Shown here in pieces: positions 5,087 through 25,506 of a stretch of 42,622 nt of DNA. Position numbers and translations under genes: made by a program. Where the stretch lies: the NCBI GenBank assembly GCA_903824855.1, contig CAIJYI010000010.1, positions 1 to 42,622 of the forward strand, in the 5' to 3' direction. This DNA comes from an uncultured bacterium. GTDB lineage: Bacteria; Patescibacteriota; Minisyncoccia; Phycocordibacterales; CAIJYI01. The notes beneath the pieces are model-generated. The model was not told the origin of the DNA. It did not search any database and was given only the letters and a program-made list of their open reading frames with translations. Position 1 is the first letter of the stretch, and every line of letters begins with the position of its first letter.

Positions 5087-6874
5087 CTATTCGATTTCAT
5101 TTTCAGGATTTTCAGCCTGATCAAAATCTATGAGATAAATTCTCGGTTTTTTAGTGAAGTCGACATTTCCATTTTCATCATGGAAGAATTTCAGACTAAA
5201 ATTGTTGTCATGCGGGTGGCCGTGAATTATGGCATTATCGCGAAGAACGCGTAAAATCATATTTCTGTCTTTTGTTAATTCATCCCTAAAATCTTCCGTC
5301 ATTTGATACCAGTCGTAAAAGGAAAGATCAAGAACTCCGCTATATACATCCGCCATTCCGGAATCGGTCATTTTGAAGGATTGAATCGGTTCGATTGGTA
5401 CGTAATCAAAACCGTTATCTTTCCAGAGTTGATAGTCCTCAAAAAGCCTCTGCCAAACGAGAAATGGATTAATTTCAATTTCTCTCAAGACTGTTTTGTT
5501 TTTCAAATCACCACCGATAAGGGTAAGTTCTGAACCTGTTTTAAGAAAATCTTTTCGTGAAAAATTGTCTTCCGAAATATTTCCTCCTTCATACAATCGG
5601 GACTCAACAACATTATTTCCCAATTGTTTTTTTGCCAGATCAAAAAGTTTCTCTTTTTCATTATCCTGAAGAAGATGAATCATTTTTAGACATCTGCTTT
5701 GTATCGTCGGATGAATGTTTTTCAGTCCGGCTTCGAGAAGTGACGGCCAATATTTCTCGGGAAGAGAATGGATGGTCATCGTGTATATTTTTGCCGATTC
5801 TTCATCGTCGCTCGCGAGACCTTTCTCAAGAATTTGAGAGAGATGCAGATAGAGGGGCGCACGATCTTGATTGTTTGAAATCGAATCGATATTCATCGCA
5901 CAAATTTTATGTATCTCCGCGTTTTCTATTGAGAGCGCTTTTTCAAAAAGTGCGGCGCGTTCATTTTCAGTAGCAAATTCAATGGCGGACACGGTCTTTT
6001 TTTGAACGTCACGGCTTTGATTATCGAGACCAATTTGTATCAAGGAAGCAATTTCATTTCTGGGTGAAGAATGAATCATCTCGGCTGCCATTTCCTGTAA
6101 TTTTTCCGTGCCGTTCATGAGTAAATCTCGAGTGAAGGAAGCCCTTTTTTCAATTGAGGCATATTCAATCATTGAGGCGGAGATTAATCGGTCATTCTCA
6201 TTTTCACTTTTAAGACCTTTTTCAATTATTGAGGATACCTTTTTTGTGAGAATTTCTTCCTCGTTTTTTGATTCTAATGATATATTCCAGATATTTGACG
6301 CACATAATTTTTGGATAGTAAGATTGTTGCTCTCCAGTCCTTTTTGAAGAAGCGGAGGTATCGTATTTCCCGGTACAAACTTAATCAGCCCCGCGAACTC
6401 TTCCGCCAAAGCAATATTTTTGGAGTCCAACTTTTCGGAAATAAGGGAAGACAAATGCGAGTACATAGAGCTTTTTTTCTCTTTCGGGAGATAACCGATT
6501 AACCACGCGCATTTCCATCTCACTTCAGGAAAGTCGCTTTGAAGACCAATCTGTATGAGTTCAGAACGATCTTCAATTTTTACATAACCAATTTTTTCGG
6601 CGCAGTCTAATTGCTCGCGCATATCTTTGCTTTTCAGACCTTCTTTAATGATTTCAGACATCTTACTGATTGGAGCTTCGGCGAGTATGTCTTTTATTGT
6701 TATGGGTATTTCCGTGTGGTAACCCTTCGCCTCATTCTTGAAATTTTCCTTGTCTTTTTGGTATCTCTCAAGAGAATGTTCAGTAATTTCTTCTTGTCCG
6801 GGCAGTCGGTACATTCCCAGCGCTTCCGCCGGAATGATATTTAATTTTTCACTTTCATTTTTATAGTTTTCCAT
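5087..6874 (-). CDS. Helical-repeat protein with kinase-like C-terminal domain (595 aa)
   Basis: I do not recognise a named family. Residues about 60-420 are roughly ten helical repeats of HEAT/ARM character. Each begins with a pattern such as IIKEGLKS, LIQIGLQS, LLQKGLES, IIEKGLKS or ILEKGLAS. The C-terminal 150 residues resemble a phosphotransferase or protein-kinase fold: HGHPHDNN (551-558) at the place of the catalytic loop and IDFDQA (DFD 583-585) at the place of the metal-binding DFG/DFD. The usual catalytic Asp of HGD is His here. The N-terminus carries a GQ-EIT-HS-RYQKDKE segment shared with the paralogue at 24196-25506. It is leaderless by its promoter. Pseudokinase or unusual transferase are both possible. 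Confidence 0.7.
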   Translation of the reverse strand: MENYKNESEKLNIIPAEALGMYRLPGQEEITEHSLERYQKDKENFKNEAKGYHTEIPITIKDILAEAPISKMSEIIKEGLKSKDMREQLDCAEKIGYVKIEDRSELIQIGLQSDFPEVRWKCAWLIGYLPKEKKSSMYSHLSSLISEKLDSKNIALAEEFAGLIKFVPGNTIPPLLQKGLESNNLTIQKLCASNIWNISLESKNEEEILTKKVSSIIEKGLKSENENDRLISASMIEYASIEKRASFTRDLLMNGTEKLQEMAAEMIHSSPRNEIASLIQIGLDNQSRDVQKKTVSAIEFATENERAALFEKALSIENAEIHKICAMNIDSISNNQDRAPLYLHLSQILEKGLASDDEESAKIYTMTIHSLPEKYWPSLLEAGLKNIHPTIQSRCLKMIHLLQDNEKEKLFDLAKKQLGNNVVESRLYEGGNISEDNFSRKDFLKTGSELTLIGGDLKNKTVLREIEINPFLVWQRLFEDYQLWKDNGFDYVPIEPIQSFKMTDSGMADVYSGVLDLSFYDWYQMTEDFRDELTKDRNMILRVLRDNAIIHGHPHDNNFSLKFFHDENGNVDFTKKPRIYLIDFDQAENPENEIE

Positions 6875-12071: not shown

Positions 12072-12992
12072 ATGGCAAACAGGCACCTTTCAAGATCGAT
12101 TGTCCTTCAAACACTCTTCGAGTGGGACTTTCGTGATAAAAAAGACGAGACCGTCGATGCAATACTGGATCGCGATGTTACTGAATTCGCGCCGGGACTT
12201 TCCGACATGTCTTTCATAAAGACCCTCGCTCTTGGTGTCGTGAAAAAAAACGAAGTTCTAGATTCAATTATTTTAAAGGCTGCTCCTGAGTGGCCTCTTG
12301 ATCGTATCTCAGTTATCGACAGAAACATTCTTCGTATCGGTCTCTACGAACTTCTTTTCTCTGATCATTCCGATGTACCTCCTAAAGTAGCTATTAATGA
12401 ATCCATTGAACTCGCCAAAACTTTCGGCGGAGAAACCAGCGGTAAATTCGTCAACGGAGTTTTGGGTGCCGTCTACAAAGAACTCGGTGAACCGGGGAAG
12501 GATGATATCAATAAGAAGAAGAACCAAAATGTCCCTCGCGAACAACTACCACTCAAACAACTAGCCGGTGCTGTTGTCTACGCCAAACACGATGGGGATA
12601 TTTATCTCGCTTTTGTTCACGATATTTTCGGTCACTGGACACTCTCAAAAGGAAAAATTGACGGAGACGAAACCACCGAACAATGTGCCATCAGAGAAAT
12701 CAAAGAAGAAATCGATGCTGACATCACCATCAAACAAAAACTCGGAGAGAACGAATATATCGCCAACAGTCCTGAACTCGGCAGATATCGAAAGAACGTT
12801 TGTTACTTCTTGGCTGAAGCCCCTTATGGAGAACTTAAATTAGAGGAGGAAAAAGGCGGACTCGACGACGTGCGATGGTTTAAGATTGAAGAAATTGCCG
12901 ATTTGAATTTCTACGATGATATACTTCCGATAATCACAAAAGGCGTTGAAGTTCTCTCAGGAAAAGAAGAATCGAAAGAAGAAGAAAAATAA
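12072..12992 (+). CDS. nusB: NusB transcription antitermination factor fused to a Nudix domain (306 aa)
   Basis: Residues 1-140 are NusB, an all-helical RNA-binding protein that works with NusE (S10) on boxA during rRNA transcription. Seen are NRHLSRSIVLQTLFEWDF, IDRNILRIGLYELLF and AINESIELAKTFGGETSGKFVNGVLG. After a lysine-rich linker, residues about 165-290 are a Nudix hydrolase with the box G194-KIDGDE and REIKEE (208-213). WTLSKGK before it resembles the diadenosine-tetraphosphate hydrolase type (W-LPKG). The reading frame is continuous, so this is a real fusion. The gene lies just upstream of rnc, so rRNA synthesis and processing appear coupled. The Nudix substrate is not known. Confidence 0.92.
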   Translation: MANRHLSRSIVLQTLFEWDFRDKKDETVDAILDRDVTEFAPGLSDMSFIKTLALGVVKKNEVLDSIILKAAPEWPLDRISVIDRNILRIGLYELLFSDHSDVPPKVAINESIELAKTFGGETSGKFVNGVLGAVYKELGEPGKDDINKKKNQNVPREQLPLKQLAGAVVYAKHDGDIYLAFVHDIFGHWTLSKGKIDGDETTEQCAIREIKEEIDADITIKQKLGENEYIANSPELGRYRKNVCYFLAEAPYGELKLEEEKGGLDDVRWFKIEEIADLNFYDDILPIITKGVEVLSGKEESKEEEK

Positions 12993-13728: not shown

Positions 13729-14595
13729 ATGAATCTGGAAAGTTTGCTCAACATTTTCGGAAATCAGAAAGAGGGTGAATTTGAGCCTTCGGTCAATGAA
13801 GGTTCTTCAGAGAAAAAAAATCATTCCGATGATCATAAAAATGAAATACAAAATCCTCAAAAAGAGAAAGAGAAGCAAGCTCTTCTGAATTTGCAAAATG
13901 GAGTTGTTAAATCAATGGTGGAGTTGGATGAAGGAACGGTAAATTCTGTTTTTTTGGTTGAGTTTACGAATGGTACATCCGGCATTTTTAAGCCGGCGTC
14001 AGGCGAATCAGCTATGCGAAAAATTGAACACGGTACTTTATTCAAAAGAGAAAGGGCCGCTTATTTAGTGAACGCAGAGATGAATTTTGGTTTCGTACCG
14101 CCTACGATAATTAGAAAAATAAACGGACAGATTGGAAGTTTACAGTTATTTATTCCCGACACCTTGCCTTACTACGAAATTCGGCGAGAAGAAATTTCCA
14201 GAAAAGAACATATTCAAAATCAACTAAAAACTTTTTGGGTCTATGATCTGCTTATCCATAATTCCGACAGACACATGGGAAACATCCTCTGTGAAAAAGT
14301 AGACGGAAATTTTAACCTTCATGCGATAGACAATGCCGCTTCGTTTTGTAAGTCGGAACTTCGCTTTGATGTAGGTAATTTTTTTGACCAAGAACTTCCT
14401 GAAGATTTGGGAGAAAAAATAAGTAATCTTCGTAAAAATCAATTATTGAGAGAAAAACTCCGGGCATTACTCCTTGAATTGCTAAATAAAAAAGAGGTGG
14501 AAGCTTTCTTTGCGAGGGTGAATCTGATTGGGGATACCATAGATGAATGCAATTCAATACCACGTTCAAGGTACGACACCATTACGAATATTTAA
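13729..14595 (+). CDS. PI3/4-kinase-like phosphotransferase (288 aa)
   Basis: An atypical kinase of the phosphatidylinositol 3-/4-kinase fold, as seen in some bacterial proteins of unknown target. After 55 acidic, probably disordered residues comes the nucleotide-binding part with GIFKPASGE (Lys88). The catalytic loop is NSDRHMGNIL (Asp180, Asn185) and the metal site is AIDNAASF (Asp201). All key residues are present, so the enzyme should be active. It starts 3 bases after rnc, and two more small genes follow within 10 bases each. A protein or small-molecule substrate is more likely than inositol lipid in such a cell, but this is inference. Confidence 0.75.
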   Translation: MNLESLLNIFGNQKEGEFEPSVNEGSSEKKNHSDDHKNEIQNPQKEKEKQALLNLQNGVVKSMVELDEGTVNSVFLVEFTNGTSGIFKPASGESAMRKIEHGTLFKRERAAYLVNAEMNFGFVPPTIIRKINGQIGSLQLFIPDTLPYYEIRREEISRKEHIQNQLKTFWVYDLLIHNSDRHMGNILCEKVDGNFNLHAIDNAASFCKSELRFDVGNFFDQELPEDLGEKISNLRKNQLLREKLRALLLELLNKKEVEAFFARVNLIGDTIDECNSIPRSRYDTITNI

Positions 14596-14602
14596 TTTTT
14601 TT

Positions 14603-14863
14603 ATGAAATACGTGGAAATTAAGAAACTTCAAAATGACGGAACGCAATTATTACTTGCAACCTGTACTCTTTTTGATGATGAAATAAAAATCGAGGGAGA
14701 TCAAAAATTTGCTCAGTTTGTGACGGAAGAAGGAATTAATAATTATTCCGAAGACGGTTCTAAGAAATTGTTTCCAAAAGACGGTTTGCTTTTTCTTGAA
14801 CAACTCCAATATAATTTCAAGTCGGGATATCTGAGTGCCGGGCCGGTACAAGAATCAAACTAA
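14603..14863 (+). CDS. Small orphan protein between kinase and nucleotidyltransferase (86 aa)
   Basis: I do not recognise this protein. It starts MKYVEIKKLQNDGTQLLLAT and has alternating hydrophobic residues suggesting a mainly beta fold, then FVTEEGINNYSEDGSKKLFPKDGLLFLEQL and a short tail. No membrane segment or cysteine cluster. The ATG at 14603 leaves a 7-base gap after the kinase-like gene; an earlier in-frame ATG at 14543 would overlap that gene by 53 bases. The tight spacing on both sides suggests a shared function with the kinase and nucleotidyltransferase. Confidence 0.65.
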   Translation: MKYVEIKKLQNDGTQLLLATCTLFDDEIKIEGDQKFAQFVTEEGINNYSEDGSKKLFPKDGLLFLEQLQYNFKSGYLSAGPVQESN

Positions 14864-14867
14864 TTTT

Positions 14868-15617
14868 ATGGTAAATGAAGGGGTAATGAATGAAAATAAA
14901 TCTGCCGAGGCATTTCCCGAGGCAACGGATATTTTCCCGGAAGGTGAAGCTGAATTTTTAAACCAAGAAAGACAACCTTATCGGACCGATAAGCTTTTTG
15001 ATGCACGCAAATCAGGAGAGACGTATAACAGGGAATTCTTTGCCGTTATCCGAGACGTGGAATCACGGTTTTCAGAAATTCCGGAATTTATTGGTCTTGC
15101 TCCTTTTGGTTCGTACACAAAAGGGTATGCCAATGATGCATCGGATTTTGATATTTACGTCATTATTGATGCACCGACACGTGAATTACCGGCTGTGGAT
15201 AAGATTATTACGAGCGTAGAAGAAGAATATAAGCAAAAAGGAATTAAAATTTCCATACATAAGGAATCGATTTCCACGGAAAATTTTGGTACCGAAAATG
15301 CCTCCATTTCAGAATCAACAATCGAATCTGCCGAATCAATGGCGTTATTGACTCGTACCATAACCGGCCATAAAATAGGAAAATATCGCGAGCTCGTGAA
15401 GAAAAAAGTTGATAAAATGTATCCTTTGAAACGGAAAGCTTTTTTTGAAAATATTGTTATTATTCTGACGGAACTCGACGGACTCTCTCGAACTCTCGAA
15501 AAAATGGATAGGCGAGCCGATGAAAATGAAAATTCCGATGAATTTGATAAAGAAAAATATGTAAATGCGCGCCGAGAACTCTGGGAAAAACGCGCTCACA
15601 AACTTTTTGGTGAATAG
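14868..15617 (+). CDS. Nucleotidyltransferase-fold protein A (249 aa)
   Basis: A protein with a polymerase-beta type nucleotidyltransferase core. The signature is PFGSYTKGY (Gly81, Ser82) followed by SDFDIYVI (Asp93, Asp95). The third carboxylate expected on the next strand is not clear: the strand reads KISIHKES, with Ser129 where paralogue B has Glu. The C-terminal half is helical and charged. The start could be 14868 (4 bases after the previous stop) or 14886 (preceded by GAAGGGG); I prefer the first because of the spacing. Targets of such enzymes include antibiotics, tRNA and proteins; none can be assigned. Confidence 0.75.
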   Translation: MVNEGVMNENKSAEAFPEATDIFPEGEAEFLNQERQPYRTDKLFDARKSGETYNREFFAVIRDVESRFSEIPEFIGLAPFGSYTKGYANDASDFDIYVIIDAPTRELPAVDKIITSVEEEYKQKGIKISIHKESISTENFGTENASISESTIESAESMALLTRTITGHKIGKYRELVKKKVDKMYPLKRKAFFENIVIILTELDGLSRTLEKMDRRADENENSDEFDKEKYVNARRELWEKRAHKLFGE

Positions 15618-15761: not shown

Positions 15762-15841
15762 AATCTTATATTTTTATCTCTATCGACAAAAGATTCTTTT
15801 TGTCGTAGAATCCAGATAGGTTTTTGATGTTTGAAACTGAA

Positions 15842-15871
15842 TTTTGTGTGTTCAAAAACACAAAAAGGGAG
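15842..15871 (+). promoter_or_regulatory. Hairpin touching the ribosome-binding site of gene 15878
   Basis: TTTTGTGT (15842-15849) pairs with ACACAAAA (15858-15865); the next base starts the Shine-Dalgarno AGGGAG (15866-15871). The site decides the start at 15878. Control of translation by this stem is a guess. A second 8-bp hairpin (CGACAAAA/TTTTGTCG) lies at 15784-15805. Confidence 0.5.
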
Positions 15872-15877
15872 ATTTTT

Positions 15878-16564
15878 ATGTTGTACAAGAAAAAATTAAA
15901 GCTCCGCTTTGATAAGATTGTTGATGCGACAAATATTGACGGTAAGAAAAATCAATATGTTTTTGAGGTTACCAAACGAATAGAAAAAGAACTTTCAAAA
16001 TTTCCGGAATTTATCGGTGTTTTTCCTTTTGGTTCAAGAGTGAAAGGCTATGGAAGTGAAGATATTATCGAGACTAAGACGGGAATGAAAGGTTCTGATT
16101 ATGACGTCTATATTTTAGCAGATAATGCTCTTTCCTGGGGTGCCGAGGATCTCTATGAACACTCTGCGATTATCGGTAATGAATATCGGAAATTAGGAAT
16201 AAAGATTGAATTTATCATTCAATATATAAACATCAGGAATTTGGACGGTCTGCTTGAGATGTTGGATATTGTTGGTCCTGAATATCTTTCTTTGGTGAGT
16301 TTTTCAAATTTGTTACGACCCGGTCGCGGTAAAAAAATCAAAGCATGGCGAAATGTGGTAAAAGAAGAACTGTTAAAAATGACCAAAGAAAAGCGCGAGA
16401 AATTATTGCGATTATTTTCCGACAGTTTAGTTTTTGCGGATAAACGGTCGCTGGTAAAGATTACAGAAAGAATTCCCGACTTTGATAAAAATGATTGGCT
16501 TCAATCCCGCCGAAAACTTTGGACAAAGAGAGTCTGTAAAATATTCGATACAATATATAATTGA
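15878..16564 (+). CDS. Nucleotidyltransferase-fold protein B (228 aa)
   Basis: Paralogue of protein A: both contain FPEFIGVFPFGS or a close version, an SD-x-D motif, and a similar C-terminal RRKLWTKR helix. Here GSRVKG starts at Gly52 and SDYDVYI gives Asp74 and Asp76, separated by an insert of about eleven residues absent from A. Glu111 in GIKIEFII can serve as the third metal ligand, so this copy has a full catalytic set. The ATG at 15878 is chosen for its AGGGAG site; the longer frame begins at 15824 within poor sequence. A terminator follows. Substrate unknown. Confidence 0.75.
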   Translation: MLYKKKLKLRFDKIVDATNIDGKKNQYVFEVTKRIEKELSKFPEFIGVFPFGSRVKGYGSEDIIETKTGMKGSDYDVYILADNALSWGAEDLYEHSAIIGNEYRKLGIKIEFIIQYINIRNLDGLLEMLDIVGPEYLSLVSFSNLLRPGRGKKIKAWRNVVKEELLKMTKEKREKLLRLFSDSLVFADKRSLVKITERIPDFDKNDWLQSRRKLWTKRVCKIFDTIYN

Positions 16565-24195: not shown

Positions 24196-25506
24196 ATGGA
24201 AAATATTACACAAAAAGATAAAAATGAAATCTTGCCGTCGTACATTCATATGTATGATATTTCCGGGCAAAATGAGATAACCCCGCATTCTTTTTTGCGT
24301 TACCAAAAAGATAAAGAAAAAAATCAAAGTAATGTTGAAGATCTGGCAAAAGAGAATCCGATATTGAGCAAACAAGGTCTCCCGGAATTTTCGTCGGAGA
24401 ATGATAAAATTTCATTTATTAACGATGGTTTGTCGAGCGGAGATATTTATGCGGAATTACTTTCCGCTAAATTAATCGAAAGCGTTATCGACGAAGATGA
24501 TAAAAAAACTCTCAGAATCAAACTCTTTGAGGTCGTCTCAAAAGGTCTTGAGGGCGGAAATGTGGAGTCAGAAACAGATTATTCGTGGCTGATTGAATAT
24601 GTCCCTGTGGAAAAGCAAGAAGTGCTCAAAGAAAAGATATTTTCAATACTAGAGCAGGCATTTGAGACAGGCGACGTTACGAAAACCAAAGAACGCGCTC
24701 ACCTTATTTCGTTCGCTTCAGATAAGAAGCTCCCGATTATTATCGAAAAAGGATTTTTGAATGGGGATTCTGATGTACGTTTCTTTTGTCTCAAACAGAT
24801 GGATCGACTTCCTGATGCTCTGGAGGATAAATTGAAGATTGAGGAGATGGTGGAAACGTTTATCCGCGAAGGGTTCGCGAGCGGAGATAAAGAGAGGATG
24901 AAAGAATGTGTCGCATTAAATCGTTTCGCTCCGAAAGAAAAACAAAAAGAACTTTTTGAAAAAGCGAAAGAAATTTTTGGAAATTCTCTTATTGAATCGG
25001 CTCTCTATGATAAGTACGACGTTTCAAACGAGCATTTTTCGAGGCAAGAATTTGAGAAAACGGATTCGCGTCTGATTCTCATTGGAGGAGAATTGAAAGA
25101 AAAAACAGTTATTCGAAAAATCAGTCCTGAGTCATTTTTGGGATGGCAGAAATTGTTTGAGGATTATACTCTTTGGCAATCGGCAGGATTTGATTATGTG
25201 CCCGTCGAACCGATTCAATCATTCAAAGTCGATAGTGCCGATGAGACGGTAGAAGTGTATAGCGGTGTATTGGATTTGAGTTATGAATGGTGGAAGCAAA
25301 TCTCCGCCGGAAGTTTTATCGAGGAATTGGAAAAAGACAAAGACACTATTTTAAAATGTTTAGCGGAAAAAAATATTGACCATGGACACCCCCATGAAAA
25401 CAATTTCTGCCTCAGATTTTTCAGAGACGAGAAGGGTAATGTAGATTTCAACAAAAAACCGCGCATGTATTTAATCGATTTTGACCAGGCGAAGAAAATT
25501 GACTGA
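24196..25506 (+). CDS. Helical-repeat protein with kinase-like C-terminal domain, paralogue 2 (436 aa)
   Basis: Paralogue of the gene at 5087-6874 with about half as many repeats. Both share the N-terminal GQ-EIT-HS-RYQKDKE segment, a helical-repeat middle (here about five units such as FINDGLSSGD, VVSKGLEGGN, IIEKGFLNGD), and the C-terminal domain. That domain has LIGGELKEKTVIRKI, a strongly conserved FDYVPVEPIQSF, HGHPHENN (396-403) and LIDFDQA (DFD 428-430). In aminoglycoside-phosphotransferase-like kinases the loop reads HGDxHxxN; the Asp is His in both paralogues, yet the second His and the Asn are kept. A conserved but altered active site, rather than decay, is the best reading. Confidence 0.7.
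   Translation: MENITQKDKNEILPSYIHMYDISGQNEITPHSFLRYQKDKEKNQSNVEDLAKENPILSKQGLPEFSSENDKISFINDGLSSGDIYAELLSAKLIESVIDEDDKKTLRIKLFEVVSKGLEGGNVESETDYSWLIEYVPVEKQEVLKEKIFSILEQAFETGDVTKTKERAHLISFASDKKLPIIIEKGFLNGDSDVRFFCLKQMDRLPDALEDKLKIEEMVETFIREGFASGDKERMKECVALNRFAPKEKQKELFEKAKEIFGNSLIESALYDKYDVSNEHFSRQEFEKTDSRLILIGGELKEKTVIRKISPESFLGWQKLFEDYTLWQSAGFDYVPVEPIQSFKVDSADETVEVYSGVLDLSYEWWKQISAGSFIEELEKDKDTILKCLAEKNIDHGHPHENNFCLRFFRDEKGNVDFNKKPRMYLIDFDQAKKID

What the first reader, a model, noticed from the sequence alone, without database searches (positions are those of the whole stretch)
5087..6874. Helical-repeat protein with a kinase-like domain whose catalytic Asp is His
The 595-residue product joins about ten HEAT-like repeats to a C-terminal domain with HGHPHDNN (551-558) and IDFDQA (583-585). 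These sit in order and spacing like the HGDxHxxN and DFD motifs of aminoglycoside-phosphotransferase-type kinases. The Asp that acts as base is His553. The motif and its neighbours are strongly conserved in the paralogue at 24196. That argues for a working but altered site, for example a nucleotide-binding pseudokinase or a transferase with a different chemistry.
Basis: partly seen in the sequence, partly recalled or inferred. Interest (0 to 1): 0.8.

Follow-up and report, generated by a model that had tools for sequence, protein, structure and literature searches.

The report
HEAT-repeat pseudokinase with catalytic Asp→His
A protein from a tiny-genome bacterium joins a helical-repeat arm to a cut-off kinase-like domain in which the key catalytic aspartate has become histidine; the same altered site is kept in relatives across Patescibacteria and DPANN archaea, so it looks like a new, conserved family of probable ATP-binding pseudokinases.

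Summary
The 595-aa product (minus strand, 5087-6874) joins about ten HEAT-like repeats to a C-terminal domain. AlphaFold2 predicts that domain at pLDDT 90, and Foldseek's listed PDB hits are protein kinases (best E 6.5e-6). There are three paralogues in the genome. In 38 distinct relatives from Patescibacteria and DPANN archaea, the HRD-His, loop Asn-Phe and both DFD Asps are invariant. His replaces the catalytic Asp in 35 of 38; the others are S, N and, in one fast-evolving member, HGDLHTGNF. A canonical HRDAHHRNF kinase aligns His553 to the catalytic Asp. The domain is under purifying selection (dN/dS about 0.06-0.08). Best reading: a Mg-nucleotide-binding pseudokinase acting as a switch or scaffold on a HEAT solenoid. 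His as base or nucleophile, or SelO-like AMP transfer, stays open. Precedents: HGH in Toxoplasma ROP36, HG[R/K/H] in ROP5, SelO's HGV, and SteC, inactive when cut just after its DGD motif. No matching Pfam or NCBIfam family and no conserved gene neighbour were found.

The parts
5087..6874 (-). Whole gene: 595-aa HEAT-repeat protein with a C-terminal truncated pseudokinase domain (P0001)
   Evidence: three paralogues in the genome
6746..6814 (-). Conserved N-terminal motif MYxxxG...RYxxxK (residues 21-43)
   Evidence: invariant M, Y, G, Y in 20 aligned members; within this genome found only in the three paralogues
5636..6652 (-). About ten HEAT-like helical repeats (residues ~75-413)
   Evidence: family repeat profile, 9 envelopes; Pfam HEAT_2 7.6e-20 in relative L059; PADLOC HEAT-ARM 7.7e-5 in P0001
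5105..5596 (-). Kinase-like domain (residues ~427-590); the protein ends 10 residues after DFD
   Evidence: AF2 model pLDDT 89.8, Foldseek kinases, alignment A2
5483..5485 (-). Arg464, in strand β3 at the inferred place of the ATP-binding Lys
   Evidence: R in 37 of 38 rows; predicted strand 58-64 of the model; the equivalence itself is inferred
5198..5224 (-). Catalytic-loop motif HGHPHDNNF (551-559); His553 sits at the catalytic Asp position
5120..5128 (-). DFD (583-585), metal-binding DFG equivalent
   Evidence: both Asps invariant in 38 of 38
24196..25506 (+). Paralogue P0002 (436 aa), same architecture with a shorter solenoid
25381..25407 (+). HGHPHENNF motif of the paralogue (residues 396-404)

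Best explanation
The gene encodes a pseudokinase, a member of a previously unlisted family built as an N-terminal MY...G...RY motif, then a HEAT solenoid, then a kinase-fold domain cut off just after DFD. SHOWN by sequence and prediction: kinase fold, Asp→His at the catalytic position, invariant loop Asn and DFD Asps, Arg at the β3 Lys position, absence of everything after DFD, purifying selection. INFERRED: the domain binds Mg-nucleotide through the invariant Asn and DFD Asp but does not transfer phosphate to a peptide, because it lacks the Asp base and the αF-αI substrate platform. Nucleotide binding would set the shape or partner affinity of the solenoid, so the protein works as a nucleotide-gated switch or scaffold whose partner is read by the variable HEAT arm.
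For: Fold: AF2 pLDDT 89.8 and pTM 0.85 from 34 relatives without templates. Foldseek PDB: best hits IRE1 and ULK2 at 6.5e-6, 264 hits at E<=0.001, and the 50 listed are nearly all kinase domains. Position: the A2 profile aligns HGH to HRD and DFD to DFG of a Pfam-recognised kinase, and hhalign gives the same register. Conservation in 38 rows: H551, N558, F559, D583 and D585 invariant; H553 35/38; H555 36/38; R464 37/38. Catalysis unlikely: all members end 4-14 residues after DFD; by comparison SteC fragments cut 11-13 residues after the first Asp of its DGD motif were inactive (PMC13395416). Replacement of the catalytic Asp by a basic residue marks ROP pseudokinases, including HGH in ROP36 and HG[R/K/H] in ROP5 (PMC3682881), and ROP5B binds Mg-ATP non-canonically and is probably inactive (PMC4718504). 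dN/dS is 0.077 and 0.058 in the kinase domain of two orthologue pairs. There is no conserved neighbour, as fits a stand-alone protein.
Against: His can act as a general base, and H553/H555 are conserved more tightly than a dead loop needs. One member has a full HGDLHTGNF (L066), so the site can carry the canonical base. SelO also lacks the Asp (HGV, PMC3281104) yet is described as a conserved AMPylase (PMC12663964 abstract). ATP binding was not tested.
Confidence: 0.6

Rival explanations
1. An active enzyme with altered chemistry: His553 is general base or a phospho-acceptor, or ATP binds inverted as in SelO and AMP is transferred. The solenoid brings the substrate and stands in for the missing C-lobe.
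For: H553 and H555 conserved together with the metal ligands from DPANN archaea to Patescibacteria; strong purifying selection; SelO is a precedent for a kinase fold without the Asp that is an AMPylase (abstract); the HGD member L066.
Against: The C-lobe ends right after DFD in every member. Loop length varies in L027, L030, L032 and L037, and H553 is S or N in L027 and L056, which is unusual for a catalytic loop. No carboxylate in the loop is conserved; position 556 is D in only 16 of 38.
Confidence: 0.25
2. A nucleotide-free structural pseudokinase: the domain has lost ATP binding and is only a protein-binding cap of the solenoid.
For: β3 Lys→Arg (37/38), Asp→His and truncation; the distant sister subfamily (L067, L068) shows no Arg or Lys at that strand either.
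Against: The loop Asn and both DFD Asps are invariant in 38 of 38; a purely structural role would not obviously need all metal ligands.
Confidence: 0.12
3. A His-rich metal site (H553, H555, D583) with non-kinase chemistry such as hydrolysis.
For: HGHxH plus Asp could bind Zn or Fe; H555 36/38 and D583 38/38.
Against: The H555 position is His also in the canonical HRD relatives L060 (HRDAHHRNF) and L073 (WRDGHQRNF), so it is not specific to a metal site; the HGD member L066 keeps that His and the Asn without H553.
Confidence: 0.03

Closest known systems
Toxoplasma rhoptry pseudokinases ROP36 (HGH) and ROP5 (HG[R/K/H])
   Same: Catalytic Asp replaced by His or another basic residue in a kinase fold; ROP5B keeps the loop Asn and DFG Asp and binds Mg-ATP non-canonically (PMC3682881, PMC4718504)
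   Different: Eukaryotic secreted proteins with a C-lobe; no HEAT solenoid; no sequence relationship found; the replacement probably arose independently
SelO / YdiU family (HGV pseudokinase, AMPylase)
   Same: Asp of HRD lost, loop Asn kept (PMC3281104)
   Different: SelO keeps the β3 Lys and αC Glu; this family has His, Arg at β3 and no C-lobe after DFD
Minimal bacterial kinases OspG and SteC
   Same: Small kinase domain with reduced C-lobe; one member gives a weak Pfam hit to OspG (0.017)
   Different: SteC keeps an HD catalytic Asp and αF/αG; cut just after DGD it is inactive, which is this family's natural state
Bud32/PRPK and WaaP/WaaY-type kinases
   Same: Weak profile hits in single members (Bud32 0.0018; WaaY 0.19, Kdo 0.089)
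   Different: They carry the canonical catalytic Asp (own knowledge); the hits are far too weak for membership; the own genome has no Bud32 match
ActPs2 bacterial pseudokinases
   Same: β3 Lys→Arg together with loss of the HRD Asp (PMC12599244)
   Different: ActPs2 has Asn, not His, and mostly a deleted DFG; here DFD is invariant

Membership tests
Protein kinase-like fold superfamily | Kinase N-lobe sheet with αC, hinge, αE, catalytic loop and DFG strand in order | tested here: met
   AF2 secondary structure order and Foldseek kinases at E 6.5e-6, prob 1.00
Protein kinase-like fold superfamily | Complete C-lobe with activation segment and αF-αI | tested here: not met
   All members stop 4-14 residues after DFD
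Active protein or small-molecule kinase (HRD/HGD type) | Catalytic Asp in the loop | tested here: not met
   His in P0001 and 34 other rows of 38, D only in L066
Active protein or small-molecule kinase (HRD/HGD type) | β3 Lys | tested here: not met
   Arg in 37 of 38 at the β3 position; equivalence inferred from the predicted strand
Active protein or small-molecule kinase (HRD/HGD type) | Metal ligands: loop Asn and DFG Asp | tested here: met
   Invariant in 38 of 38
Pseudokinase (kinase fold lacking at least one of β3 Lys, HRD Asp, DFG Asp) | Kinase fold with one or more of the three residues replaced | tested here: met
   HRD Asp→His and β3 Lys→Arg; definition in PMC4718504
Pseudokinase (kinase fold lacking at least one of β3 Lys, HRD Asp, DFG Asp) | No phosphotransfer activity in vitro | not testable with these tools
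   Needs biochemistry
Aminoglycoside phosphotransferase family (PF01636) | Match to the family profile | tested here: not met
   No APH hit among 34 members at E<=1
SelO-type AMPylase | β3 Lys and αC Glu kept while the Asp is lost | tested here: not met
   β3 is Arg and the candidate αC Glu479 is 30/38
SelO-type AMPylase | AMP transfer | not testable with these tools
   Needs biochemistry
HEAT-repeat proteins | Tandem helical repeats matching HEAT profiles | tested here: met
   HEAT_2 7.6e-20 in L059 and 7.4e-6 in L058; weak in P0001 by Pfam, family repeat profile 9 envelopes

The most novel reading that the evidence does not exclude
A truncated kinase fold that is an active transferase using the conserved His pair (H553/H555) in place of the catalytic Asp, with the HEAT solenoid taking the place of the C-lobe as substrate platform, conserved between Patescibacteria and DPANN archaea.
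Probability: 0.2. Interest if true: 0.85.

Novelty: new variant of a known kind. Interest (0 to 1): 0.58.

Why it matters
Bacterial and archaeal pseudokinases are little explored. A family kept under strong selection in reduced genomes of both domains, with the catalytic Asp fixed as His and the C-lobe absent, tests how much of the kinase fold is needed for nucleotide sensing. The natural HGD member and the canonical HRD relative give ready-made controls.

Tried and rejected
Single-sequence search of genome contigs with P0001 found nothing; the alignment was needed. The first AF2 run with 7 close paralogues was poor (pLDDT 57) and was not used. Profile search of the PDB by sequence gave only chance hits. 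Viral contigs, phages and plasmids: no relative, so a phage or plasmid origin was dropped. Defence role: PADLOC matched only the generic HEAT/ARM repeats, and no defence neighbours recur. Decayed pseudogene: rejected by low dN/dS and deep conservation. C-lobe encoded downstream in another ORF: the next gene after 5087 is an Nramp transporter, and truncation is family-wide. Mevalonate kinase as a relative: rejected, because the alignment does not cover the motifs and vanishes with the wider profile. Bud32 in the own genome: none. One dN/dS script failed on a wrong domain boundary and was rerun.

Full report
OBSERVATION. The ORF at 5087-6874 lies on the minus strand and gives a 595-aa protein with HGHPHDNN at 551-558 and DFD at 583-585. 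The paralogue at 24196-25506 is 436 aa and matches over the N-terminus and the C-terminal domain; in the domain both HGHPH and YLIDFDQA are kept. The genome (1.1 Mb, 45 contigs) holds a third paralogue on contig C41, with HGHTHDDNF. Only the strand was not stated.

FAMILY. Seven genus members gave alignment A1. A scan of GTDB representative genomes with patterns taken from GF[DEN]YVP and PR[IM]YLID, not from the HGH motif, returned 33 loci from Nomura-, Magasanik-, Uhr-, Kaiser-, Morani-, Specht-, Vogel- and Levybacteria and from Diapherotrites and Nanoarchaeota. The family is sporadic: 6 of 397 genomes of the order, 5 of 380 sampled from the phylum (one of these is the canonical kinase L060, not a family member), and 7 of 86 in the order of G613 (two of these, G785 and G828, match only through a distant sister subfamily). 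No relative was found among viral contigs, phages or plasmids.

FOLD. AlphaFold2 on the 34-row alignment without templates gave pLDDT 89.8 and pTM 0.85. Foldseek against the PDB gave IRE1 at 6.5e-6, then ULK2 and others, with 264 hits at E <= 0.001 and protein kinase domains throughout the listed ranks. The viral library gave the same picture. TM-scores normalised by the query are only 0.4-0.5, as expected for a domain without the rest of the C-lobe. No Pfam or NCBIfam family covers it. Weak single-member hits are Bud32 0.0018, OspG 0.017, Kdo 0.089 and WaaY 0.19.

THE CATALYTIC POSITION. The family profile hits a canonical Patescibacteria kinase (L060) that Pfam recognises as Pkinase/APH. The alignment places HGHxHxxNF on HRDAHHRNF and YLIDFD on YIIDFG, and profile-profile comparison gives the same register. 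In 38 distinct rows H551, N558, F559, D583 and D585 never vary, H553 is His in 35, and H555 is His in 36. The exceptions at 553 are S in L027 (HRSFDHDENF, one residue longer), N in L056 (HGNNTNNNF) and D in L066 (HGDLHTGNF). L030 and L032 keep HGH with a one-residue longer loop, and L037 has a shorter loop. On a maximum-likelihood tree the archaeal and both bacterial groups carry HGH, and L066 sits inside one of them on the longest branch. The simplest reading is that HGH is the family's old state and D a later change, but the place of a long branch is uncertain.

(a) Every member, archaeal ones included, ends 4-14 residues after DFD, so the activation segment and helices αF-αI do not exist. 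(b) The β3 position normally Lys is Arg464 in 37 of 38 rows; this equivalence is inferred from the predicted β3 strand. (c) A motif MYxxxG...RY near the N-terminus is shared by the family and within this genome occurs only in the three paralogues. (d) A distant sister subfamily (L067, L068), also with a long N-terminal part and ending after ID[FW]D, has HGHGHPGN or HGHPLKGN; the two subfamilies find each other's profiles.

SELECTION. Nei-Gojobori dN/dS for two orthologue pairs is 0.077 and 0.058 in the kinase domain and 0.10-0.11 in the HEAT part; synonymous sites are near saturation, so these values are rough. This is not a decaying gene.

CONTEXT. Clustering the ORFs in 39 stretches, with up to about 4 kb on either side of the gene, shows no recurrent partner beyond scattered housekeeping genes. 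The gene stands alone.

MECHANISM. Shown: fold, substitution, truncation, retained metal ligands, selection. Inferred: the domain binds Mg-nucleotide, does not phosphorylate peptides, and acts as a switch or scaffold on the solenoid. Precedents are ROP5 and ROP36, where the Asp is replaced by a basic residue and ROP5B binds Mg-ATP in a non-canonical way (PMC3682881; PMC4718504), and SteC, whose fragments ending 11-13 residues after the first Asp of its DGD motif were inactive (PMC13395416). The main rival is an active enzyme with other chemistry, for which SelO is the model (PMC3281104; named an AMPylase in the abstract of PMC12663964). I give the pseudokinase 0.6 and the active enzyme 0.25.

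NOVELTY. Literature searches for pseudokinases or HEAT-kinases in CPR or DPANN organisms found no report in the held library. That library lacks most subscription journals and preprints, so a prior description cannot be excluded. The HGH substitution itself is known in one eukaryotic group. The combination of HEAT solenoid, HGHxHxxNF, β3 Arg and a domain ending after DFD was not found described. I call it a new variant of a known kind.

Noticed in passing
window 13729-14595 (+): SCO1664-family-like protein (TIGR03843 E 3.7e-26, below cut-off; PI3/PI4-kinase 1.6e-4) with an intact DRHxxN loop: a second, probably active atypical kinase in the same window.
   Followed up: partly
window 12072-12992 (+): One ORF carries a NusB domain followed by a NUDIX domain, an unusual fusion.
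   Followed up: partly
window 14835-15617 and 15824-16564 (+): Two adjacent proteins with nucleotidyltransferase-like GS-K-GY motifs; the first matches NTP_transf_2 (2.2e-5), the second no Pfam family.
   Followed up: no
L067 (1-1947, +), L068 (1-1944, -): Distant sister subfamily with long N-terminal part and C-terminal HGHGHPGN / HGHPLKGN and ID[FW]D, also ending right after it and lacking the β3 Arg.
   Followed up: partly
L060 1066-2439 (-): Canonical kinase (HRDAHHRNF, DFG) directly next to a TsaE-like ORF (2436-2891) in a Patescibacterium; relatives in L073 and L074.
   Followed up: partly
L030 2698-3990: The HEAT array contains near-identical 93- and 114-bp DNA repeats in tandem, so solenoid length has changed recently while the C-terminal domain stays conserved.
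   Followed up: partly
L066 205-2097 (+): Single family member with HGDLHTGNF and GDFD, on the longest branch of the tree; a natural control for the Asp/His question.
   Followed up: partly
L044 3-500: Family copy with an in-frame stop in the kinase domain, probably a decaying gene or assembly error; left out of all alignments.
   Followed up: no
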